From NCBI RefSeq assembly GCF_033097365.1, contig NZ_AP028461.1, positions 10,815,501-10,879,500 on the forward strand: a stretch of DNA of 64,000 nt, written 5' to 3'. The position numbers were made by a program, and so were the translations under genes. This document shows positions 51,814 to 64,000 of the stretch, one piece after another (position 1 is the stretch's first letter; every line of letters begins with the position of its first letter). The notes under the pieces were generated by a model. The model saw only the letters and a program-made list of their open reading frames with translations. It did not search any database and had not been told where the DNA came from. This DNA comes from Actinoplanes sichuanensis (GTDB lineage Bacteria; Actinomycetota; Actinomycetes; Mycobacteriales; Micromonosporaceae).

Positions 51814-52114
51814 GCCTCACATCCTGCCTCGGGGGTATGACAGAAACCGGAGCGCTGACGCGCCTCCGGCGAGAGATTTCCCGGTTCGGCCGGTTCGATC
51901 ACCTTTCGCTTCTTCAGATGTACGCCGGACCGCACCGACTGGTGACGTTGCGCTTCACGGGCGCCCCGTGGCTGCCTTTTGGCTGACTCCGGAGCGCGAT
52001 ACCCGTACCGCATCCTGATTTTTCTGATCTTTGATGTTCTGAGCGGTGACCGGGTGATCGGCGTTCCTTGGGCGGTCTGTGGCTGATTATCCTGATACTC
52101 GACGTGATGGGTGG
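51814..52114. other. Divergent intergenic region between lhr and the Ser/Thr kinase gene
   Basis: About 300 bases without a recognisable gene. It includes a relatively AT-rich patch (52013-52045, runs of T in CTGATTTTTCTGATCTTTG) and a candidate kinase promoter. Short open frames here have no ribosome site or family resemblance. Confidence 0.5.
52068..52094 (+). promoter_or_regulatory. Candidate promoter of the Ser/Thr kinase gene
   Basis: TTGGGC (52068-52073) and TATCCT (52089-52094), 15 bases apart, resemble -35 and -10 elements. Transcription from here would start near 52100, which excludes the frame's first GTG at 52079 as the start codon. Confidence 0.35.
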
Positions 52115-52120
52115 GTGCCG

Positions 52121-55100
52121 ATGGCGGTCAGGCAGATGCTCGTCGCAGGTCGGTACCGTCTCGTGGAACCGGTCGGCGCGGGTGGGATGGGCCGGGTCTG
52201 GCTGGCCCGCGACGAGATGCTGCACCGCGACGTGGCCGTCAAGGAGATCGTGCCACCCGAGTGGATGTCCGATGTTGAACAGCACAGGCTGCATGAGCGG
52301 ACCCTTCGGGAAGCACGCAGCGCCGCTCGTCTCAACCATCCCCATGTGGTTCGCATCTACGACGTGGTGCACACCGGGGGCCTGTCCTGGATCGTCATGG
52401 AGTACGTCCAGTCACGCTCTCTTTACCAGGTATTGAATGAGGAAGGACCGTACGAGCCGGCGGTCGCCGCGCGGATCGGCCTAGCCGTGCTGGACGCGCT
52501 CGGCGCCGCCCACCGGGCTGGCGTCCTGCACCGTGACGTGAAGCCGCACAACGTGCTCATCGGTACCGACGGCCGCGTCGTCCTGACCGATTTTGGTCTT
52601 GCCACGTTTGTCGACGACGGCGGGGTGACCGCGCCCGGGCTGATAGTCGGCTCGCCGCAGTATGTCTCCCCGGAGCGCGCCCGCAACGGCGCCTCGACCG
52701 TCGAGTCCGATCTGTGGTCGTTGGGCGCCACCCTGTACGCGGCGGTCGAAGGCCATTCGCCATACGCTCGGGAGACCGCGATGGCGACGCTGGCCGCCCT
52801 GGCCACCGAACCGCCCGACCCGCCTCTCCGGGCCGGCCCGCTGGCCGCCGTCCTGGACGGTCTGCTGCGCTTCGACCCGGCGGCACGTCTCACCCTTCCG
52901 GAGATCGAACGCCGGCTCCGCATGATCGTCTTCAGCGATCCACAGGAGATCCCCTTCCTGCCCACCCGGCGTGGTTCCCGGCGGCCTGCTTCCTCTCCGC
53001 CCGCTTCCTTTTCGGGCCGCTCGGCGGACGTTTTCGGGGCCTCGTCGGCGCCGGGTGCCAGGCGATCCGGGTCGCCGGGCGCGGTCCCGCAGCGACCCGC
53101 CGCTTCTGCTGGTGGGCGACCGATTCCTCCGGCTTCGGGCGATGCGCGATCTGCTTCTTCACGGAACGCTTCTTCTCGCCCTTCCGAGCCGCGCCCTTCC
53201 GAGCCGCGACGTGCCGAGCCGCGACGTGCCGAGCCGCGCCCTTCCGAGCCGCGACGTGCCGAGCTGCGCCCTTCCGAGCCGCGACGTGCCGAGCCGGGTC
53301 CTTCTGAGCCGCGTCCTTCTGAACCGCGCCGTGCCGAGTCGGGTCCTTCTGAGCCGCGTCCCTCCGAGCCGCGTCCTTCCGGGCCGCGACGTGCCCAGTC
53401 GCGATCTTCCGAGCTACGGAATGCCGAATTCTGGCTCGCTGATCCACAGTCCGTTGGCCCGCAGTCCGTTGGCCCGCAGTCCGTTGGCCCGCAGTCCGTG
53501 GGCCCGCAGTCCGTCGGTCCGCAGCCTGTGGGCGCGGAGTCGGTTGTTCCGGACCCGGTCGGTGTGTGGCCTGTCAGTCCGCGGCCCGTCGAGTCACCGA
53601 CAGACGAGTCGCGGAATCCGGCTTCTTCCCCTTCCTCCGGTCGGGCCTCCACGGTCGGCGACCATGATCCGGCTGTAGTGGCGCCACGGTCCGCGGCAAC
53701 CGGACCTACCGGGCCGGGCGAGCCGACCAAGCCCGCCGGACCGCATCGGGGCCGGGCAGCGGTGACCGACCCCTCAGCCCCGCAGGCCCAGCCCGTTCCA
53801 CATCCGCGGATGCCCTCACCCGCGGACCGCTCCACGCCACCCCAAAGCCGTCCCGTACCCGCCGCGGACCAGCTCACGCCGTCTGCGAATCGCCCACCGC
53901 AACCCATGACCCGGCCCGCCTCGTCTGCGGACCTTTCCGCCTCGTCTGCGGAGTGCTCTTCGCCGTCCGATGATCGCTATACGCCGTCGGGTGTTCCCGA
54001 GGCGTCAATGCCGGCTCCGTCCGGGCGGCCTTACTCGGCTCCGCGGCCTTTCCCGGCTGTGCCCAGGCAGCCACCTCCACCGCCGCGATCGTCCCCAGCT
54101 GAATCGCTGCCCCAAACTGAATCGTCGCCTCCGCCGTCGTTGCCTCCGCCTCCGCGGCCGCCGTCGTCTCTGTCGTCGCCGTCGCCGTCGTCTCCGTCTC
54201 CGTCTCGGCCGTCTCCGTCGGAGGCGATCGCGGCTCAGACGCCGGATGCGAAGTCTGATTCGATTGTGGATGCCACCGGTTCTGTCCCGCCTCCGCCGAC
54301 TGTGCGACGACCAGCGCCCACATCCGGGCCGATCCGTGGCCTGCCACCCCGGCAGCGCCGCTCCGAATCCACATCCAAGTCCGAAAAGGATCTCCCCAAA
54401 CCGCGCCCATCCCATCCCTCCGAGCCACTCCCACCGCAGGCGAGGGCGGCAGCCGCGACGCCTGACTCGAGCGCGGTCGGGGCCGCGGGAGGTACGCGCC
54501 ACCCGGACACCGGGCAGGTCGTCGGATCGGCGGCCCGCACCACGGAAGTGCCTGGCGGAGTCGCCGCTGTATCCGGCCCCACGGCCGCGACTGCCGACGC
54601 CATTTCCTCGGCGGCGGATGGAACGACCTCGGCGGGCGCCCCTGCGGGGAAGCCGAGATCTGCGGTAACCCGTCCTCCTGACGCATCAGGAGTCCATTCG
54701 GGCAATGCCGCCGCAGGCAAGGAACGTGCGGCGACGGGGCACGACCCCGACACCGAGAACAGTCGGGCGGGCGAGGCGCCCAAGAAGCCCGGCCCGGGTA
54801 CCGCACTCGTCCTCTTCACCGGCGGCGATACAGCGGATTCCGCGGGATTCCGAGCCGGTGGTCGGCGCAGCCGGGAAGCGACAGCTGAAACCAGAACGGA
54901 GAAAGTCCGAACCTCGGACACCGGCCAACCCCAGCAGCCGGACAGCCTGGCGGTCGCCGATCGAACGAGCCGGGGGGTGACCGCTACCGATCAGATTTCC
55001 GGCGTCCGTCGTGACACCACGTCCGACCGCGCGGATGAGCCGGGCCCGAAACCCGCCGAACAGGCCGTCGCCGAACAGGCCGTCATCGGACAGGCCGTCG

Positions 55101-56485
55101 CCGGGCAGGCCGTCATCGGACAGGCCGTCGCCGGGCAGGCCGAAGCGTCGATCGATCCACCAGCGAGATCACCGGAGGATCCCGATCTTGTACGGTCGTC
55201 CCAGCCGCCTGGCCAGGCCCTAGCCCGAGTCGATGCCCACTCTGAATCAGCTCGCTCGGCCGCTTCAGTCGCATCCGTCGGTTCAGTCGCACCCCGCGGC
55301 TCAGCCGCGTCCGCCGGCCCGGCCGCCTCGCCCCATTCAAGTGGTCCGGTCCCTTCATCCACTCCAACGCGTTCGGCCACTTCAACGCGTTCAGCTGGTT
55401 CGGCTGGTTCGCCTGGTTCGGCCCGTTCGGCTGGTTCGGCCGGTTCGGCCCGATCGGTCCCCTCCGGCCGATCGCCTGGTTCGCCTCGTTCCGCTCCTTC
55501 GGACGGTTCTGTCGGGTCGGCTCTCTCCCGGAAACGGCGCTGGGCGGGCCGGGCTGCCGTGCGGGTCACTCCGACCCGACTGGCGCTCACCGGACTCGTC
55601 GTCCTCCTGCTCGGCGGCAGTCTTCTGGCCGGTTACGTGGTCGATCTGACCGCGGCCCGCCCCCGGGTCGTCCTCCCGTCACCGTTGTCGACCGATGCGG
55701 TCTCGGGTCGCTCCGCGACCGCCATGTCCGACCCCGGCCCGAACTCCCCGAACTCTCCGCCCGGCCCGCCTGACTCGGCCGGTGCCGAGCCCTTGCCAGG
55801 AGCCGCCAACCCTTCGGCAACGTCGGCAGGCTCGGCCGGTCCGGCCCCGAACTCCGTAGATCCTCAGGGCGCCGCCCAGAACTCTCCGGGCGGAACACCT
55901 CCCTCCGAAGCCGCAGGAGCGACCGCCTTCTCACCGTCCCTCTGTGACGGACCGCCGCCCGACGACCTGCCCGTCACCCCGCTGGACGGTTCGGCCCGAG
56001 GAGTGAACGGCTGGAAGCTCCAGGCCGGGTGGTCGTACTTCACCGACGGCTCCGGGTTCCACGTCGCCGTGCCGGACGGGTGGACCCACCAGCTCATCGG
56101 CACCACCCACTGCTTCCGTGGCCCGCGCAACGCCAGGACGATCACCCTGGACGCGGCCCGTGATCCCACCACCGATCCGCTGACGGTGGCTCGTGCCGAG
56201 GAGACCCGGCTCGCCGCCTCGCGCATGCTTCCCGGCTATGCCCTCGTCGGCGTCGACCAGGTGCCGCTACTGAACAAGGCCGCCGACTGGGAGTACCGCT
56301 ACAACTCAGCGAACGGTACGGCCCGGCACTCCGTCTTCCGCTGGTTCGTCATGGGCGGCCGGGCATACGCGTTGGGCTGGAGCACCACCGAGAAGACCTG
56401 GACCGCTGACCTGACCAAAATCCGGATGATCCGTAGCACGTTCTACTCGAGCCGACCGACGCCTTCACCGAGCACCGGCCCATGA
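52121..56485 (+). CDS. Very long transmembrane Ser/Thr protein kinase with repeat-built linker
   Basis: A 1454-residue PknB-type kinase. The catalytic domain (10-285) is complete: GAGGMG (19-24), Lys41, HRDVKPHN with Asp139 and Asn144, DFG at 157-159 and the SPQYVSPERA activation segment. A linker of about 870 residues follows, rich in Pro, Ser, Ala, and containing SEPR/AEPR repeats (53170-53405), six QSVGP units (53447-53536), QAVAG/QAVIG units (55061-55150) and AGS/ARS units (55386-55512). One membrane helix (LALTGLVVLLLGGSLLAGYVV, about 1155-1175) precedes a 200-residue extracellular domain with two cysteines (SLCDG and THCFRG). Start: ATG 52121 (GTG 52115 is possible). Signal unknown. Confidence 0.87.
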   Translation: MAVRQMLVAGRYRLVEPVGAGGMGRVWLARDEMLHRDVAVKEIVPPEWMSDVEQHRLHERTLREARSAARLNHPHVVRIYDVVHTGGLSWIVMEYVQSRSLYQVLNEEGPYEPAVAARIGLAVLDALGAAHRAGVLHRDVKPHNVLIGTDGRVVLTDFGLATFVDDGGVTAPGLIVGSPQYVSPERARNGASTVESDLWSLGATLYAAVEGHSPYARETAMATLAALATEPPDPPLRAGPLAAVLDGLLRFDPAARLTLPEIERRLRMIVFSDPQEIPFLPTRRGSRRPASSPPASFSGRSADVFGASSAPGARRSGSPGAVPQRPAASAGGRPIPPASGDARSASSRNASSRPSEPRPSEPRRAEPRRAEPRPSEPRRAELRPSEPRRAEPGPSEPRPSEPRRAESGPSEPRPSEPRPSGPRRAQSRSSELRNAEFWLADPQSVGPQSVGPQSVGPQSVGPQSVGPQPVGAESVVPDPVGVWPVSPRPVESPTDESRNPASSPSSGRASTVGDHDPAVVAPRSAATGPTGPGEPTKPAGPHRGRAAVTDPSAPQAQPVPHPRMPSPADRSTPPQSRPVPAADQLTPSANRPPQPMTRPASSADLSASSAECSSPSDDRYTPSGVPEASMPAPSGRPYSAPRPFPAVPRQPPPPPRSSPAESLPQTESSPPPSLPPPPRPPSSLSSPSPSSPSPSRPSPSEAIAAQTPDAKSDSIVDATGSVPPPPTVRRPAPTSGPIRGLPPRQRRSESTSKSEKDLPKPRPSHPSEPLPPQARAAAATPDSSAVGAAGGTRHPDTGQVVGSAARTTEVPGGVAAVSGPTAATADAISSAADGTTSAGAPAGKPRSAVTRPPDASGVHSGNAAAGKERAATGHDPDTENSRAGEAPKKPGPGTALVLFTGGDTADSAGFRAGGRRSREATAETRTEKVRTSDTGQPQQPDSLAVADRTSRGVTATDQISGVRRDTTSDRADEPGPKPAEQAVAEQAVIGQAVAGQAVIGQAVAGQAEASIDPPARSPEDPDLVRSSQPPGQALARVDAHSESARSAASVASVGSVAPRGSAASAGPAASPHSSGPVPSSTPTRSATSTRSAGSAGSPGSARSAGSAGSARSVPSGRSPGSPRSAPSDGSVGSALSRKRRWAGRAAVRVTPTRLALTGLVVLLLGGSLLAGYVVDLTAARPRVVLPSPLSTDAVSGRSATAMSDPGPNSPNSPPGPPDSAGAEPLPGAANPSATSAGSAGPAPNSVDPQGAAQNSPGGTPPSEAAGATAFSPSLCDGPPPDDLPVTPLDGSARGVNGWKLQAGWSYFTDGSGFHVAVPDGWTHQLIGTTHCFRGPRNARTITLDAARDPTTDPLTVARAEETRLAASRMLPGYALVGVDQVPLLNKAADWEYRYNSANGTARHSVFRWFVMGGRAYALGWSTTEKTWTADLTKIRMIRSTFYSSRPTPSPSTGP
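53447..53536 (+). repeat. Six in-frame 15-bp repeats (QSVGP) inside the kinase gene
   Basis: CAGTCCGTTGGCCCG is repeated exactly three times, then three copies with third-base or single-residue changes. The first three copies are identical at the DNA level, pointing to recent expansion. Confidence 0.9.
55061..55150 (+). repeat. In-frame 15-bp repeats (QAVAG/QAVIG) inside the kinase gene
   Basis: CAGGCCGTC plus GCCGGG or ATCGGA alternates over five units, with a degenerate sixth. Two pairs of adjacent units form an identical 30-bp duplication. Confidence 0.85.
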
Positions 56486-58498: not shown

Positions 58499-59845
58499 GT
58501 GGCAGAACAGTATCAGGTCAGTGGTGACAGCGCCGCAGAGATTTCGGCCAGCATCGAGACAGGCGTCCTCCAGGGGTTCTGGGTGGCCGGCGCCGCGCTT
58601 CCCTCGGTGCGGGTTCTGGCCGGATCCCTGCACGTCAGCCCGGCGACGGTCGCCAAGGCCTACCAGGAGCTGCGGCAGCGCGGTGTGATCGAGACCGAGG
58701 GGCGCCGCGGCACCCGGGTCCGGTCCCGGCCCGCGGTGGCCGTCCGGCGCGCCGGCCTGTACACACCGATCCCGTCCGGCCTGCGGGATCTCTCGTCGGG
58801 TGAGCCCGACCTGCGGTTGCTGCCATCGCTCGCGCCGGCCCTCGCCGCCGCGGCGGCGATTCAAAACCCACCACAGGGGTACGCGTCCGCGGTCACCATG
58901 CCCGAGCTGGTCGACGCCGCGCGGCCCCGGCTCCTCGCCGAAGGCGTCCCGGTCTCCGGGGCTGAGATCGTCGTCACGTCCGGCGCACTCGACTCGATCG
59001 AGCGCGCCTTCAACGCCCATCTCCGACCAGGCGACACCGTGGCGATCGAGGACCCGGGGTGGGCCGCCCTCATCGACCTGCTGGCGGCGCTCGGCCTGCG
59101 GGCCGCCCCGGTCGCCGTCGACGATCACGGTCCCGACCCTGATTCGCTGGCCACCGCCCTGCGTTCCGGTGCCCGCGCTGTCGTCGTCACCGTCCGCGCA
59201 CAGAATCCGACCGGCGCCGCGGTGAGTGCCGAGCGGGCCCGCCGGCTGCGTGAGCTGCTGAGCGGCCATCCAGGGGTGCTGGTCGTGGAGGACGATCACG
59301 CCGCCGAGTTGGCCGAGGGGGCGCCACACTGCATCGGCCCGGTGACCGGCTCCTGGGCGTTCGTCCGGTCCGCCTCGAAGCCGTTCGGTCCCGATCTGCG
59401 CATCGCCGTCCTGGCCGGCGATGAGACCACCGTCGCCCGGGTGGCCGGCCGGATGCGGATCGGCATGGGCTGGGTCTCCACCGTGCTCCAGCGGATGCTG
59501 CTGTGGCTGTGGCGTGATCCGGAGGTGACCGCGCTGGTGGGCCGGGCCGCCGAGACCTACGGCAAGCGCCGCCGGGCGCTGCGCGAGGCGCTCCGGGCCG
59601 AGGGCGTCGAGGTGGGCGGTGACACCGGGATCAACGTCTGGGTGCCGGTGCCCGACGAGACCCATGCGGTCGCGGCGCTCCGTGACCGGGGCTACGCGGT
59701 CGCTCCGGGGGCACTCTTCCGGGTGAGCTCTCCACCCGGGATCCGCATCACGATCAGCACTCTGGACCCGGTGGAGGCGCCGGAGTTGGCCCAGGCGGTG
59801 GCGTCTGTCCTCCACCCGGCCGGCAGCCTCCCCCCGATGCGGTGA
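58499..59845 (+). CDS. MocR-type GntR/aminotransferase-like transcription regulator
   Basis: A 448-residue fusion of a GntR winged helix (residues 10-75: LPSVRVLAGSLHVSPATVAKAYQELRQRGVIETEGRRGTRV) and a class I aminotransferase-like domain with the pyridoxal phosphate lysine Lys294 in RSASKPFGPDLR. MocR proteins sense PLP or amino-acid aldimines and usually control a divergent gene. Here the divergent operon encodes a PNPOx-like/GNAT fusion and a LysE exporter, with a perfect palindrome in the gap. GTG start; no ribosome site visible, consistent with a leaderless message. Confidence 0.88.
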   Translation: MAEQYQVSGDSAAEISASIETGVLQGFWVAGAALPSVRVLAGSLHVSPATVAKAYQELRQRGVIETEGRRGTRVRSRPAVAVRRAGLYTPIPSGLRDLSSGEPDLRLLPSLAPALAAAAAIQNPPQGYASAVTMPELVDAARPRLLAEGVPVSGAEIVVTSGALDSIERAFNAHLRPGDTVAIEDPGWAALIDLLAALGLRAAPVAVDDHGPDPDSLATALRSGARAVVVTVRAQNPTGAAVSAERARRLRELLSGHPGVLVVEDDHAAELAEGAPHCIGPVTGSWAFVRSASKPFGPDLRIAVLAGDETTVARVAGRMRIGMGWVSTVLQRMLLWLWRDPEVTALVGRAAETYGKRRRALREALRAEGVEVGGDTGINVWVPVPDETHAVAALRDRGYAVAPGALFRVSSPPGIRITISTLDPVEAPELAQAVASVLHPAGSLPPMR

Positions 59846-59919: not shown

Positions 59920-60228
59920 ATGCCATGGACCCAGACCCCCGTCGGGGCGCAGCAGTGGGTGCCGCCGCACCCCCGGAGCATCGACGAGCTGAAGTCGGCG
60001 GCGGCGGACTGTCAGGGTTGCGAGCTCTTCGAGAACGCGACGCAGACCGTGTTCGGCCGCGGCGCACCACACGCGAAGATCGTGTTCGTCGGTGAGCAGC
60101 CCGGCGACGTCGAAGACCGGCACGGATTGCCGTTCGTCGGTCCGGCGGGCCGTCTGCTCCGTGAGGCGGTGGACGACGCGGGTATCGATCCGGCCGATCT
60201 GTACATCACCAACTCGGTGTTCTATTGA
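59920..60228 (+). pseudogene. UdgX-like uracil-DNA glycosylase gene truncated by a mobile element
   Basis: Only the first 102 codons remain. Visible are the Fe-S cysteines Cys31-x2-Cys34 (DCQGCEL), TQTVFGRG, the catalytic-loop motif GEQPGDVED (58-66), PFVGPAGRLL and YITNSV. Family members then continue with KHFK and, in UdgX, the covalent uracil-binding KRRIH loop; here the frame reads Phe-Tyr and stops. Full proteins are about twice this length, with the second uracil-binding motif in the lost part. DNA from about 60218-60221 onward does not continue the gene and leads into recombinase genes. The other half should lie beyond the window if the insertion was simple. Confidence 0.8.
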
Positions 60229-60233
60229 GAGTT
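60211..60233. promoter_or_regulatory. Candidate left attachment site of the integrated element
   Basis: AACTC (60211-60215) and GAGTT (60229-60233) are inverted arms 13 bases apart, spanning the point where the glycosylase sequence ends. GTGTT occurs here (60217), and again at 60240 and 60256, as possible recombinase arm sites. The pairing is short, so this is tentative. Confidence 0.3.
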
Positions 60234-60431
60234 CAGATCGTGTTGCAGTACCACCGTGTTACCCCGGCCAGATCACCAGGAACCCGACTCACCCGCAGGC
60301 ACTGACCGCAGCCTTACGAGGATCTTCTGGCCTCCCCTGCAAGCGCCCTGGTGGCAACTCGGGAATCGATCTGGTCCTCCCAGCAACCAGCCTGCACCGT
60401 CCGGGCACCAAGATGTGTCGGGGTCGGTTGC

Positions 60432-60437
60432 TACCTT
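60432..60437 (+). promoter_or_regulatory. -10 hexamer TACCTT of the first recombinase gene
   Basis: TACCTT ends six bases before the GTG at 60444, the same spacing as in host genes with predicted leaderless transcripts. It selects this GTG among several in-frame starts. Confidence 0.4.
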
Positions 60438-60443
60438 CGCGCC

Positions 60444-61985
60444 GTGGTTGATCAACTCCGAGACTTCTTCTGGGCCATGAAGTGGGCAAATCCCCGCTCC
60501 GGCTCGGGCACAGTCGCAGAACTGTGGACACAGGGAGAGTTCGACCAAGCCCGAAGCGCCGCCCGGATGGGGCGCACCACCTATCCCATCTTCATCAGCC
60601 CGCAGGGTTGGCCGGACCCCGACCTGGTGGAGTTCGCTGTCAGCGGTGACCTCGCGGCGAAAGCCCGCTCAACGCAGACGACGTACGCTCACGAGATCTG
60701 GGCCTGGCTCGACTTCCTCTACGAGAAGAAGCACGGTCTGGACTGGCGCGATGCCACGGTCGAAGACCTGCGCGACTACGAATACTGGCGCTGCCGCGAC
60801 ACGAAGAGTGAGGACCGGCGGAAACGGCTCGTTGGTGGCGACACCTGGCAGAAGATCTTGGCTGCCATCGCCTGTCTCTACGACTGGGCCGTCCACCGGA
60901 AGATCGTCGCCACGAGCCCCGCCGTCTATCGAGCGTTGACCGGACGCGGCGGATCTGGTCGAGGCAGGCTTGAGCAGCGGCCGACCGACGTCCAGCGCTC
61001 CGACGTCCGCTGGTTGACCCGACGCGCCTATGAACGGTGGCGACGAATCGGATTCGAGGACTACAACGCCGCCGGCCTGCGTCGCGGCATCGAACGGATC
61101 AGGACGACAAGCCGCAACGTCGCGTTCGCGGACTTCGCCTACGGCACCGGACTGCGGCGACGCGAGATCGGCGGGCTACTCACCATCGACCTGCCACGGC
61201 TGGACGAGGACGCCTCGATGCTGTCCGGCTGGCTCGCCGCTGCGCTCGGCAAGGGCCGGCGAGGCCGTGTCTTCTACATCGACCGGCGGCACCTGACCCG
61301 CGTCTACGCCTACATCCGTGACCAGCGCCGCCTGTCCATCAAGCGCGCTGAGCACCACGGCCGCTATGACGAGATCCCCGACAAGATGATCGTCACGAAC
61401 GTACGCCGGCTCGGGGGCCGAAATGCGACTGTCACCTACACCGATGAGTTCGGCGGTGCACCGCAGCGCAACGTCCTCAACGCCGTGCCCCTCGATCAGC
61501 GCATGCGCATGTTCCAGCAGACCGAGGACGGCTTGGAGCCGCTCTGGCTGTGGCTGCGTGAGAACGGGCTGCCGCAGCCGATCGAACGCTGGAACAGCGT
61601 CTTCGCCGAGGCGAACAAGCGCATGGTCCGGGAAGGGCTGAAGCAACACGTCACACCCCACATGCTCCGTCACTCCTACGCGCTACACATGCTCTGCCAA
61701 GCCCAGAACGCCTACCTGCTGCGGTCCGGTATGGCTCCGGACGAGCGGCGGCAGTATCAGGCGCTGTTCGGCAACGTCTGGGAACTGGTCCGCGACCTGC
61801 TCGGACACGCCAGCGTCGAGACAACGAAGGACTGGTACCTCGAACCGGTCCGAGGTTTGCATTGGCAGACGCTGCTGATGGCGCAGGATGACAGCCCGGT
61901 TGCCGACACCGACACCATCCTTTCCCTGGTCAGCAAGCACTCCGGCCTGGTTTACGACGTTCCGAAGGACCTGCGTGGCAACTGA
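60444..61985 (+). CDS. Tyrosine recombinase 1 of the element (canonical active site)
   Basis: A 513-residue site-specific recombinase. The N-terminal SAM-like arm/core-binding domain contains STQTTYAHEIWAWLDFLYEKK. The catalytic domain has all residues expected: Arg238 (GTGLRRREIGGLL), His406-x2-Arg409 (PHMLRHSYALHM), His455 (LLGHASVETT) and nucleophile Tyr465 (KDWYLEPV). It likely performs strand exchange for the element. GTG 60444 is supported by a -10 hexamer; ATG 60477 would shorten it by 11 residues. The next gene starts 11 bases before its stop. About 215 bases separate it from the truncated glycosylase gene, with no further gene in them. Confidence 0.88.
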   Translation: MVDQLRDFFWAMKWANPRSGSGTVAELWTQGEFDQARSAARMGRTTYPIFISPQGWPDPDLVEFAVSGDLAAKARSTQTTYAHEIWAWLDFLYEKKHGLDWRDATVEDLRDYEYWRCRDTKSEDRRKRLVGGDTWQKILAAIACLYDWAVHRKIVATSPAVYRALTGRGGSGRGRLEQRPTDVQRSDVRWLTRRAYERWRRIGFEDYNAAGLRRGIERIRTTSRNVAFADFAYGTGLRRREIGGLLTIDLPRLDEDASMLSGWLAAALGKGRRGRVFYIDRRHLTRVYAYIRDQRRLSIKRAEHHGRYDEIPDKMIVTNVRRLGGRNATVTYTDEFGGAPQRNVLNAVPLDQRMRMFQQTEDGLEPLWLWLRENGLPQPIERWNSVFAEANKRMVREGLKQHVTPHMLRHSYALHMLCQAQNAYLLRSGMAPDERRQYQALFGNVWELVRDLLGHASVETTKDWYLEPVRGLHWQTLLMAQDDSPVADTDTILSLVSKHSGLVYDVPKDLRGN

Positions 61986-63771
61986 CACCCCCACAGCGAC
62001 GACAACGCCCAGGGGCTACACCCGCCCGTCGCCGCTACGGCCCGACCTAAAGGTGATGCCGGTCAGCGAACGTGGCGAGAGTCTCGGCGTCTGGGATTTC
62101 GGCGACGAGATGCCCGGCGCGCTGGTGATCCGCACGGCTCTCGCGGCTGCCTTCGCTGACGCCCTCGATGTCGGCGGCCCCTGGCGTTCCAAGTCCACCG
62201 CGCTCGCGGCGTTCAACGGCTGCAAGCACTTTCTGCGCTGGTTCAGCGAGTCAGGCCGAGAACTGAGCCACCTGCGGGATCTGACGCCCGCGGCCTGGAA
62301 TGCATATTTGATCGCCACCCCCGCTTCGGTCGTTACCGCGCGGCTGTCCCTCGTCAAAACGCTGCTTCGCCGAACCGGTCAGTTGACGCCGGCGACATTG
62401 CGCGCGGTCGACGTCCGCAGCAAACGGCACGAGGCTGCCGTTCAGCAGAGCCTGACGAAAGAACAGGCCAAGGCCGTCAAGCGGACCCTGCATCGCATCG
62501 TCGCCGATGCCCATCGCCGCATCCTGAACTCCTGGCAGCACCTGGAGGACTACCGGGCGGGGGTCTTCGCGGAAGGCACCCTCGACGAGCGGCTGGGCCG
62601 CATCCTGGCCCACGTCGCAGACCACCTCGATGCCCCTCGTTCCGCAGCGACGGCTCACGTCACCGGCGAGGTCCAGCGAGTCATCGGCTCACGCGACTCG
62701 ATGCGGGCGATGGAGCGGCTGTTCCTGCGCGGCGAGGAAGCCGCTGCCGTCATGTCGCTGTTCGCCCTGCACGAGGGCTGGAATCCTGGCGTCATCATGG
62801 GTTTGACCATCCGGGACGTCACCCGGGCGGACGACGGCGAGATCGACTTGCCGACTTACACCGTTGCCCTGGACAAACCGCGACGCGGCCGGCAGCGGCA
62901 CATGACGAACAACCTCGTCGAGACCTCTAGCCGGACCGGTGCAGCGGTCTTGAGGATGACGATAGAGATGACCGCGTCCACGCGTGACCTCCTCGCCGCC
63001 CGCGGCGCACCGTCGGAGCGGCTCCTGATCCACCTGCCGATGAGTCTCAACGGTCGTGGCCGCCGGGGTGACGACACGCTACTAATCAGCCCGAATCCCC
63101 TCCGGGGCAGCGTGACGACGAAGCAGATGCGCGCCCTCTCTGCCCAGGTCGGGCTGCGTGACGAGAATGGAGAACTCGTCGCGTTCAACTTGCAGATGCT
63201 GCGCCGGACCACCGTCACCCAGACCGGCCCGCAGGGACACACCGAAGCGACTAACGCCAATGTTTACCGTCTGAAAGACAAGCAGGTACGGGCGGAGAGC
63301 CAGCCGGTGTTCGAGCAAGGACTCCGGGAAGCCCTCGCCCATGCCGAGGCCACCGTGCTCAAGACCGCAGCGCGGGCCGCGACAAGCGACCTGGACCCCG
63401 AGACCGCACAGAAGATCGACGACGGCGTCCTGGACACCCCCGTCGGCTCGTGCAAGGACGTCGAGCACAGCCCACTTAACAAGGGTCAACGCTGCAACGC
63501 CTCCTTCCTGATGTGTTTTTCCTGCTCAAACGCTGTTGTTGTCCCGCGACAACTACCTCGGATCGTCTACCTGCATCACCGCCTCGACACGCTGCGCCGG
63601 AGCCTGGGCGACAGCCCGGCCTGGGAGCGATGGATGCCCCACTGGCTCCGCATCACCGACCTGCTCGACCGGCACTTCACCGATGCCGAACGCGCCGCGG
63701 CCTTCGGAAAAGCGACTCCCGTGGACACAACCCTGATCGACGCCATGCTGAACAAGAGGTACGACATATGA
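61975..63771 (+). CDS. Tyrosine recombinase-like protein 2 with degraded active site and Cys motif
   Basis: A 598-residue protein with the layout of a tyrosine recombinase. The SAM-like domain includes SKSTALAAFNGCKHFLRWFSESGREL. In the catalytic domain the first Arg region reads HEGWNPGVIMGLTIRD without the Arg, the HxxR box reads Gln-Met-Leu-Arg (NLQMLRRTTVT), and the GH and Tyr positions remain (GHTEATNANVYRLKD). The C-terminus has a four-cysteine motif, C-x13-C-x6-C-x2-C (GSCKDVEHSP, GQRCNASFLMCFSCSNAVV), resembling a zinc ribbon. GTG 61975 follows GAAGGA by five bases and overlaps gene 1. Probably a structural or directional partner of recombinase 1. Its stop overlaps the third gene (ATGA). 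Confidence 0.78.
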   Translation: MATDTPTATTTPRGYTRPSPLRPDLKVMPVSERGESLGVWDFGDEMPGALVIRTALAAAFADALDVGGPWRSKSTALAAFNGCKHFLRWFSESGRELSHLRDLTPAAWNAYLIATPASVVTARLSLVKTLLRRTGQLTPATLRAVDVRSKRHEAAVQQSLTKEQAKAVKRTLHRIVADAHRRILNSWQHLEDYRAGVFAEGTLDERLGRILAHVADHLDAPRSAATAHVTGEVQRVIGSRDSMRAMERLFLRGEEAAAVMSLFALHEGWNPGVIMGLTIRDVTRADDGEIDLPTYTVALDKPRRGRQRHMTNNLVETSSRTGAAVLRMTIEMTASTRDLLAARGAPSERLLIHLPMSLNGRGRRGDDTLLISPNPLRGSVTTKQMRALSAQVGLRDENGELVAFNLQMLRRTTVTQTGPQGHTEATNANVYRLKDKQVRAESQPVFEQGLREALAHAEATVLKTAARAATSDLDPETAQKIDDGVLDTPVGSCKDVEHSPLNKGQRCNASFLMCFSCSNAVVVPRQLPRIVYLHHRLDTLRRSLGDSPAWERWMPHWLRITDLLDRHFTDAERAAAFGKATPVDTTLIDAMLNKRYDI

Positions 63772-64000
63772 CCAGCGCCGCTGTCATTCCCCTGCACTCC
63801 GACGAGGCGCGCATCTCCTGGGCAGCCGACATGCCGGCGTTCCCGCGAGACCAAGTTCGGCCCGATGTCCTCGCCTCCGGGGCGCGGTTGCCGCGCTACG
63901 GCGACGACGAATGGGCCCTATCGCTGCTCGACCACGGGGATAGTCCGAACTCCCTGCGCGTCACCTGGTCGACCTTTCCCGCCCGGTTCCGCGAGACCTT
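63768..64000 (+). CDS. Third gene of the recombinase operon (3' end outside window)
   Basis: Begins at ATG 63768, overlapping the previous stop by four bases, and runs out of the window after 77 codons with no stop. The visible part (SWAADMPAFPRDQVRPD, GDDEWALSLLDHGDSPNSLR, VTWSTFPARFRET) contains no catalytic motif but resembles, in my recollection, the N-terminal part of the third protein of actinobacterial recombinase trios. If confirmed, the element is a three-recombinase type like RIT or a Tn554 relative. No domain can be named from this fragment alone. Confidence 0.6.
   Translation, partial: MTSAAVIPLHSDEARISWAADMPAFPRDQVRPDVLASGARLPRYGDDEWALSLLDHGDSPNSLRVTWSTFPARFRET

What the first reader, a model, noticed from the sequence alone, without database searches (positions are those of the whole stretch)
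59920..64000. Recombinase-trio element inserted in a UdgX-like glycosylase gene
The glycosylase frame matches its family through YITNSV, then stops two codons later. Three tandem, overlapping genes follow, the first a complete tyrosine recombinase (R238, H406, R409, H455, Y465). Known trios are RIT elements and the Tn554 family (TnpA/B/C); sizes here (513, 598, unknown) fit neither RIT proteins (about 320-400) nor Tn554 in order. Insertion in a DNA-repair gene would disable it, or restore it on excision. Nothing in the visible 4 kb says what the element carries.
Basis: partly seen in the sequence, partly recalled or inferred. Interest (0 to 1): 0.75.

Follow-up and report, generated by a model that had tools for sequence, protein, structure and literature searches.

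The report
Four-gene jumping element splitting udgX
A 5.9-kb mobile DNA element that carries almost nothing but its own four movement genes has jumped into a DNA-repair gene of an actinomycete bacterium, and a distant cousin in another genus has hit exactly the same six bases, facing the other way and carrying a spare version of the gene.

Summary
Confirmed and completed with the whole genome. The udgX frame stops where a 5,907-bp element begins; the missing 3' half (KHFRF...SRRIH...HPS) lies directly beyond it. Ends are 15-bp perfect inverted repeats (TTCTATTGAGAGTTC) with 74-nt subterminal repeats (89%). The element holds four genes: a complete tyrosine recombinase (513 aa), a second lacking the first catalytic Arg (598 aa), a large third (606 aa) and a 163-aa protein. 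[quoted passage not shown] SEs are reported only from Gammaproteobacteria. Relatives give the empty site TCGGTG|AAGCA: the insertion is element plus a foreign hexamer, GTGTTC, on the intA-distal side, the SE/Tn554 'footprint' with the expected polarity. Planosporangium flavigriseum has a related element (second protein 43% identical) in the same udgX hexamer in opposite orientation; it carries a udgX-like gene whose cross-linking His is Gly. A second, 17.4-kb element of this class sits elsewhere in the window's genome, again at a 6-bp core. Likely movement: copy-out/copy-in by one-strand recombination (inferred). No other UdgX was found in the host.

The parts
59920..60219 (+). 5' half of udgX (codons M1-V100; the frame then runs into the element: F, Y, stop 60226-60228)
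   Evidence: PF03167 5.3e-16, TIGR03914 1.8e-34, profile 39-124
60214..60219 (+). left hexamer TCGGTG = the host's own core bases; identical in closest relative G029
60220..60234 (+). left element terminus (motif C) TTCTATTGAGAGTTC, perfect inverted copy at the right end (outside window, L003 11613-11627)
60238..60311 (+). subterminal inverted repeat, 74 nt, 89% complementary to L003 11539-11612
60444..61985 (+). intA-like: complete tyrosine recombinase, 513 aa (R238, H406, R409, H455, Y465)
   Evidence: PF00589 3.6e-9; residues; its family profile matches the SE IntA profile, P=94.3
61975..63771 (+). tfp-like: 598-aa diverged tyrosine recombinase, first Arg replaced (N271 in P0003 numbering), Lys302, Arg411, Tyr432 and C494/C508/C515/C518 kept; start GTG 61975 inferred
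63768..64000 (+). intB-like: 606-aa large tyrosine recombinase, begins here and ends at L003 11089 (outside window); the 163-aa srap-like gene (L003 11086-11577), right terminus, footprint GTGTTC (L003 11628-11633) and udgX 3' half (L003 11634-11996) follow outside the window

Best explanation
A minimal, cargo-free integrative element of the SE/GInt type (gene order intA-tfp-intB-srap) sits in the UdgX gene of a Micromonosporaceae genome. Shown by sequence: its ends, its four genes and their in-order relation to SE and related trios, the empty site in relatives, and six foreign bases ('footprint') on the intA-distal side. Inferred: IntA and IntB, with the degenerate recombinase and the small accessory protein, join the two ends by exchange of one strand; the circle carries six bases of the donor's left flank; integration at a 6-bp core in udgX leaves the host's own hexamer on the left and the imported one on the right. 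Copy-out/copy-in movement is the likely mode, so the donor site would stay occupied and UdgX stay off in this lineage.
For: Both halves of udgX and both ends found. Empty site TCGGTG|AAGCA in G029, and no extra codon in 28 of 29 relative loci fetched (L042-L070; one, L063, not parsed). Inserted string = 5,907 bp + GTGTTC. Element G+C 65.4% against 71.0% for the window's first 60 kb, below the lowest 5.9-kb stretch sampled there (69.5%). Profile matches lie on the diagonal: actinobacterial A-D against SE A-D P=94.3/3.3/97.7/83.0; against Klebsiella/Agrobacterium trios 100/99.9/100/68.9; against Pseudomonas/Cupriavidus trios 99.1/96.1/98.3/93.1; the latter against SE 99.4/98.2/99.5/95.8. Second insertion at the same udgX hexamer, opposite orientation, in Planosporangium; the junction pattern is in 2 of 354 family genomes, these two. 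A second element of the class in the same genome with TTC...GAA ends and a 6-bp core, with a paralogous empty site.
Against: The middle protein does not match SE Tfp directly (P=3.3). Against SE-6945 alone, without its relatives, only the third gene matched: P=14.6/0.2/94.9/3.5. Two other diagonal cells fail: fourth gene of Klebsiella against SE (0.2) and against Pseudomonas (6.7). The middle protein keeps Arg411 and Tyr432, whereas Tfp is described as lacking RHRY; loss of the first Arg is what is described for GinC, but GinC is the third gene. GInt proteins under that name were not available. GTGTTC also equals the last 3 host bases plus the first 3 element bases at the left junction, a coincidence of roughly 6 in 4096 under my parse (own estimate). 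No movement was observed; the polarity rule is informative in only one of three elements. The structure model of the middle protein was too poor to use (pLDDT 42.1).
Confidence: 0.78

Rival explanations
1. Conservative cut-out/paste-in element with a 6-bp target duplication GTGTTC/GTGTTC, the ancestral udgX of this strain having carried an extra in-frame TTC.
For: GTGTTC can be read at both junctions; the two other elements show identical hexamers on both sides.
Against: None of 28 parsed genus loci has the extra TTC, and the closest relative reads TCGGTG|AAG. In the two other elements the terminal TTC belongs to the element, so this parse is out of register with them by 3 bp.
Confidence: 0.15
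2. A RIT or Tn554-family transposon.
For: Three tandem recombinase-like genes (as RIT); a 6-bp footprint and a small last protein with a DUF6262 match below its cut-off, in the place of TnpC (as Tn554).
Against: Archetype RIT proteins are 315-410 aa and all keep the catalytic Tyr (PMC10214605, note to Table 1); here 513/598/606 plus a fourth gene. Tn554 lacks a tfp counterpart (PMC10214605).
Confidence: 0.04
3. An immobile remnant, or a co-opted genetic switch of UdgX kept by the host rather than an active parasite.
For: udgX halves show no decay: against G029, 34 synonymous and 3 non-synonymous codon differences in the 3' half, 20 and 4 in codons from about 21 on of the 5' half. Reversible elements in mutS are known (PMC5296598, abstract).
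Against: All four frames are open and the ends are perfect repeats, which suits a recent active insertion equally well; one copy in one genome gives no sign of selection.
Confidence: 0.1

Closest known systems
Strand-biased circularizing integrative elements (SE-6945, SE-6283; PMC10214605, PMC9345347)
   Same: Four genes in the same order with the degenerate recombinase second; inverted terminal motifs; 6-bp footprint on the intA-distal side; few target sites; SE-6283 and its relatives insert in bcp and carry a bcp copy, as the Planosporangium element does with a udgX-like gene.
   Different: Host phylum Actinomycetota instead of Gammaproteobacteria; middle protein not directly alignable with SE Tfp, and it keeps Arg II and Tyr; the window's element has no cargo; strand bias and lack of an empty site untested.
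GInts (PMC5385486)
   Same: Three recombinases plus a small protein, distantly related members hitting one site (ssb), loss of the first Arg in one recombinase, exchange explained by 6-nt staggered cuts.
   Different: In GInts the third gene is the degenerate one; they have 2.5-70 kb of cargo and a short AT-rich 3' end; this element has no cargo, and an AT-rich end was not tested for.
Tn554 and actinobacterial Tn554-related pairs (PMC3414803, passages)
   Same: 6-bp footprint; one large recombinase; small last protein; DNA-repair gene target (radC, recalled).
   Different: Two recombinases, no tfp counterpart.
RIT elements
   Same: Three overlapping recombinase genes between inverted repeats.
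   Different: Proteins of 315-410 aa in the archetype, all with catalytic Tyr, no fourth gene.

Membership tests
SE | operon intA-tfp-intB-srap in this order | tested here: met
   Order met; A, C, D match the SE set directly, B only through the Klebsiella/Agrobacterium and Pseudomonas/Cupriavidus trios; with SE-6945 alone only C matches
SE | second protein homologous to Tfp and lacking RHRY | tested here: inconclusive
   Direct match P=3.3; linked by P=96.1 and P=98.2 through the Pseudomonas/Cupriavidus set. First Arg absent in 12 of 12 aligned B proteins, itself included, but Arg411 and Tyr432 invariant
SE | imperfect inverted repeats C/C' at the ends | tested here: met
   15 bp perfect in this element; imperfect in the two others
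SE | 6-bp footprint: host hexamer on the intA side, foreign hexamer on the distal side | tested here: met
   TCGGTG left, GTGTTC right, G029 TCGGTG; one informative case, two others have the same hexamer on both sides
SE | no empty site on circularization; strand bias | not testable with these tools
   needs PCR and sequencing of living cells
GInt | third recombinase lacks the first Arg | tested here: not met
   third protein has GMR; the second lacks the Arg
GInt | cargo of 2.5 kb or more after ginD | tested here: not met
   srap-like stop L003 11577, element end 11627
GInt | short AT-rich 3' end | not tested
   only the whole element's G+C was computed
RIT | three recombinases of about 315-410 aa | tested here: not met
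   513, 598, 606 aa
Tn554 | TnpA, TnpB, TnpC only | tested here: not met
   an additional 598-aa recombinase-like gene lies between the two others
UdgX | motif GEQPG and R-loop RRIH (KRRIH in M. smegmatis, PMC10359453) | tested here: met
   GEQPG in the 5' half, SRRIH in the 3' half

The most novel reading that the evidence does not exclude
An actinobacterial branch of SE-type elements is specialised on udgX: it reads the 6 bp before the conserved KHF codons as its attachment site in either orientation, and at least one member replaces the host's self-cross-linking UdgX by its own variant with Gly in place of the cross-linking His, i.e. swaps a suicide DNA-binding protein for a turnover uracil glycosylase, while the window's cargo-free member simply switches UdgX off.
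Probability: 0.3. Interest if true: 0.75.

Novelty: new variant of a known kind. Interest (0 to 1): 0.6.

Why it matters
It would extend the four-gene SE/GInt machinery, with its unusual footprint chemistry, to Actinomycetota, in a stripped 5.9-kb form with everything needed presumably inside: a good minimal system for asking why a degenerate recombinase is needed. Two hits on one hexamer of a repair gene in opposite orientations suggest that the crossover needs no matching core. The udgX-like gene carried by the cousin repeats the bcp strategy of SE-6283, so carrying a substitute for the broken gene may be a habit of these elements; the second element in the window's genome, which carries no such copy, shows it is not universal.

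Tried and rejected
RIT and Tn554 were considered and dropped on gene number, size and the tfp-like gene. A simple target duplication was weighed and ranked below the footprint (see rivals). Protein searches with the middle protein and with a 12-row alignment both returned only itself and the Planosporangium protein; about 8000 candidates were scored each time, so this is not a census. The third protein gave 257 relatives under the same cap. A genome-contig scan with the two-sequence alignment gave one locus, Planosporangium. A phylum-wide sample with that alignment gave 2 of 396 genomes at E <= 1e-10, the window's own and G690 (G690 not followed up). A promoter/terminator scan found no promoter-like site and no more terminators than shuffles. 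PHROGs matched only the first protein, as integrase; PADLOC matched none of the six proteins given. Fold searches, RNA-family searches, searches of solved structures and viral contigs were not used. An attempt to find the empty site of the G287 trio by its left flank gave many repetitive matches and was not pursued.

Profile building: 12 of 17 actinobacterial loci in hand were used (L003, L027, L029, L030, L031, L033, L034, L035, L037, L038, L075, L077); L028, L032, L036, L039 and L040 were not. Rows then dropped: B of G182, C of G182 and C of G210 (stops inside the spans I chose); G196 has no B row because that gene is split over two frames. This left 12, 10, 10 and 12 rows for A, B, C and D. 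The SE relatives were picked because they hit SE-6945 Tfp by tblastn; they are not proven SEs. In one search the Planosporangium D protein was translated in a wrong frame; searches use the right one. GInt proteins under that name were not obtained, so the GInt comparison rests on the papers.

Full report
What is there. The window lies at 10,815,501-10,879,500 of a 12.14-Mb single-contig genome. G053, whose contig C23 has the length of Planosporangium flavigriseum contig NZ_JAATVW010000003.1, is scored as same family, and Planosporangium is in Micromonosporaceae; so the host is taken as a Micromonosporaceae actinomycete. No call named its genus. In L003 (window position minus 54,499) the udgX frame begins at window 59920, reads GEQPGDVED...LYITNSV, then F, Y and stop. 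The right-hand part of the gene, KHFRFELRGSRRIH...HPSAVLR, begins 5.9 kb downstream and runs to its stop, with recA after it (recA named by eye). The two halves take up TIGR03914 positions 39-124 and 125-230. So the gene is interrupted, not degraded.

Ends and empty site. The element begins TTCTATTGAGAGTTC at window 60220 and ends with the exact inverted copy at L003 11627: 5,907 bp, 65.4% G+C against 71.0% in the window's first 60 kb. Just inside lie 74-nt inverted repeats, 89% complementary. DNA like the part of the element in the window was found nowhere else in the genome except its own right-hand repeat. The closest relative, G029 (98% protein identity in the 3' half), reads ATCACCAACTCGGTG|AAGCATTTC. 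Of 29 relative loci fetched (L042-L070), 28 could be parsed; 27 read V-K and one A-K, none with an extra codon; L063 was not parsed. In 66 of 66 other genomes of the genus the best match lies in an open frame of at least 221 aa. The inserted string is therefore the element plus six bases, GTGTTC, on the right; the host's TCGGTG is kept on the left. This is the rule reported for SEs, and a like 6-bp footprint is reported for Tn554: the target's hexamer stays beside the intA end and the hexamer carried in from the donor ends up at the other end (PMC10214605; I read its abstract, section 3 part 1, sections 12 and 13, and passages). GTGTTC also equals the last three host bases plus the first three element bases at the left junction. 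I cannot explain that; my estimate of chance is about 6 in 4096, and an out-of-register copying event or an ancestral TTC insertion are alternatives.

Genes. Coding sequence covers 5,633 of 5,907 bp. The first protein, 513 aa, has all of R238, H406, R409, H455, Y465. The second, 598 aa, matches no Pfam or NCBIfam model up to E = 0.1 and no PHROGs model up to E = 0.001. In 12 aligned sequences, itself included, none has the first catalytic Arg (N in 11, E in one), while K302, R411, Y432 and four Cys are invariant. Its profile homologues in a Pseudomonas and a Cupriavidus plasmid trio match PF00589 above the cut-off, so I take it for a diverged tyrosine recombinase; the five other B proteins scanned, SE Tfp among them, match nothing. 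The third, 606 aa, has GMR, RRFR in the place of HxxR, GH and Y and matches PF00589 at 1.1e-4, below the cut-off. The fourth, 163 aa, matches several coiled-coil families and DUF6262, all below their cut-offs.

Relation to known systems. I built profiles of 10-12 actinobacterial sequences per gene and compared them with SE-6945 of pSEA1 plus three or four plasmid relatives per gene, and with two further sets of trios. Against the SE set: P=94.3, 3.3, 97.7, 83.0 for first with first, second with second, and so on. The second gene fails directly but is linked through the Klebsiella/Agrobacterium set (99.9, then 93.6 to SE Tfp) and the Pseudomonas/Cupriavidus set (96.1, then 98.2). The largest off-diagonal value is 65.4 (Klebsiella/Agrobacterium first against Pseudomonas third protein); the others are at most 17.3. 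Two diagonal cells also fail between the other sets: the fourth gene of Klebsiella against SE (0.2) and against Pseudomonas (6.7). An earlier run against SE-6945 alone gave 14.6, 0.2, 94.9 and 3.5, so the link to SEs needs their relatives. The gene order with the degenerate recombinase second is that of SEs; GInts are described with it third (PMC10214605; PMC5385486, abstract, section 3 part 1, sections 10 and 11 read). Tblastn over 72,556 plasmid records finds the second protein's relatives in 92, all below 60% identity, 42 in Streptomyces and 13 in Rhodococcus. Of 15 trio loci examined in this family (L003, L027-L040), 10 show all four genes in order, one of these with the second gene in two frames; the other five are cut by contig ends, rearranged, incomplete or without a detected fourth gene. 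In the family, 20 of 300 genomes sampled, the window's included, have a relative of the second protein. In print, SEs are given only for Gammaproteobacteria (PMC10214605), and GInts for Proteobacteria, Verrucomicrobia, Bacteroidetes and Firmicutes (PMC5385486, section 11). The listings of my searches show no SE or GInt described from Actinomycetota, and none in udgX; the library holds open-access papers only. PMC3414803 (passages) describes actinobacterial Tn554-related pairs, which may be relatives.

The same hexamer again. Planosporangium flavigriseum has a 7,382-bp element whose four proteins are related to those of the window's element (E from 2e-22 to 9e-140; second protein 43% identical). 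It splits udgX at the same six bases before AAGCACTTC, but points the other way. Three of three congeners fetched have the open gene. Its flanking hexamers are identical, GACCGC on both sides. A search for the udgX/element junction (exact pattern, so only for ends beginning TTCT) found 2 of 354 family genomes, these two, and 1 of 394 class genomes, the window's own. The Planosporangium element has room for two further genes: a 204-aa frame and a full-length UdgX-like protein of 227 aa, 57% identical to the host's. Its R-loop reads RRIG, not RRIH. In M. smegmatis UdgX, H109G gains ordinary uracil-glycosylase activity (PMC10359453, passages). [quoted passage not shown] The parallel is close. No udgX-like stretch was found in the window's element (best E 0.19). 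In its host the udgX 3' half has one match, its own, and the UDG superfamily model finds three other loci besides the two halves.

A second element in the same genome. A trio 29% identical in the second protein lies at 12.12 Mb. Its flanks match a paralogous stretch of the same chromosome (93-97%) and stretches of G252 and G224; the two flank alignments overlap by six bases on the paralog and in G252, by three in G224, where the core differs. The element is 17,391 bp, with ends TTCCCTATTGGATCTACGTGTTGA and (inverted) TTCCCTGTCAAGTCTTCGTGTTGA, and CCGCAG at both junctions. It lies inside a methyltransferase-like gene (named by eye), of which it carries no copy (best E 0.34). So three elements share TTC...GAA ends and a 6-bp core.

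How it probably works. Shown: boundaries, hexamers, target, gene set. Inferred from SE work: attL x attR exchange of one strand gives a circle that keeps the left-flank hexamer; integration of that circle at a new 6-bp core puts the imported hexamer at the right end. The use of one core in both orientations, and unlike hexamers in the window's element, fit an exchange that does not need core identity. If the element left this site precisely, either hexamer would leave an in-frame udgX (TCG GTG or GTG TTC); whether it ever does is untested. The halves show no decay: against G029, 34 synonymous and 3 other codon differences in the 3' half, and 20 and 4 in codons from about 21 on of the 5' half. 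So the insertion is young, or occasionally lost.

Noticed in passing
G000:C1:12105378-12122768 (L113/L034): Second, 17.4-kb four-gene element in the same genome, inserted in a methyltransferase-like gene of a region duplicated on the chromosome (paralogous empty site at L112:8731-8736).
   Followed up: partly
L027:11974-12657 (Planosporangium): UdgX-like cargo gene whose cross-linking His of the R-loop is Gly (RRIG); 57% identical to the interrupted host gene.
   Followed up: partly
window 60214-60225 and L003 11628-11633: The right-hand hexamer GTGTTC equals the last three host bases plus the first three element bases at the left junction; no explanation.
   Followed up: partly
L098:3580-5250 and L099:3568-5226: The middle recombinase of a Pseudomonas plasmid trio keeps the first catalytic Arg (ATGRNPQ) while the Cupriavidus one has lost it (ATGINQQ): the loss may be caught half-way in this family (read by eye).
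   Followed up: no
L074 (Klebsiella pneumoniae pVA172-90): A four-gene trio annotated as integrases and hypothetical proteins sits between an ABC transporter gene and mobF on an IncN/IncR plasmid; by profile it is closer to the actinobacterial trios than SE-6945 is.
   Followed up: partly
P0009 (Blastococcus sp. TF02A-35): The named protein closest to the third recombinase (49% identical), in another actinobacterial genus; whether its element also sits in udgX was not checked.
   Followed up: no
G228:C10:4474-5655 and G056:C3:710594-711373: Two neighbouring matches to the UdgX 3' half in two relatives: both in 223-aa frames in G228 (tandem copies?), one in a 127-aa frame in G056 (partial copy?).
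   Followed up: no
window 52079-56485: 1468-aa frame beginning with a serine/threonine kinase domain (by eye) followed by a very long Pro/Ser/Ala-rich low-complexity linker with short repeats (such as RRAEPRPSEP, SVGPQ).
   Followed up: no
window 58499-59845 and L027:13174-14493: A MocR-type regulator (by eye) stands beside udgX in both genera, which supports that the two interrupted udgX genes are the same locus.
   Followed up: no
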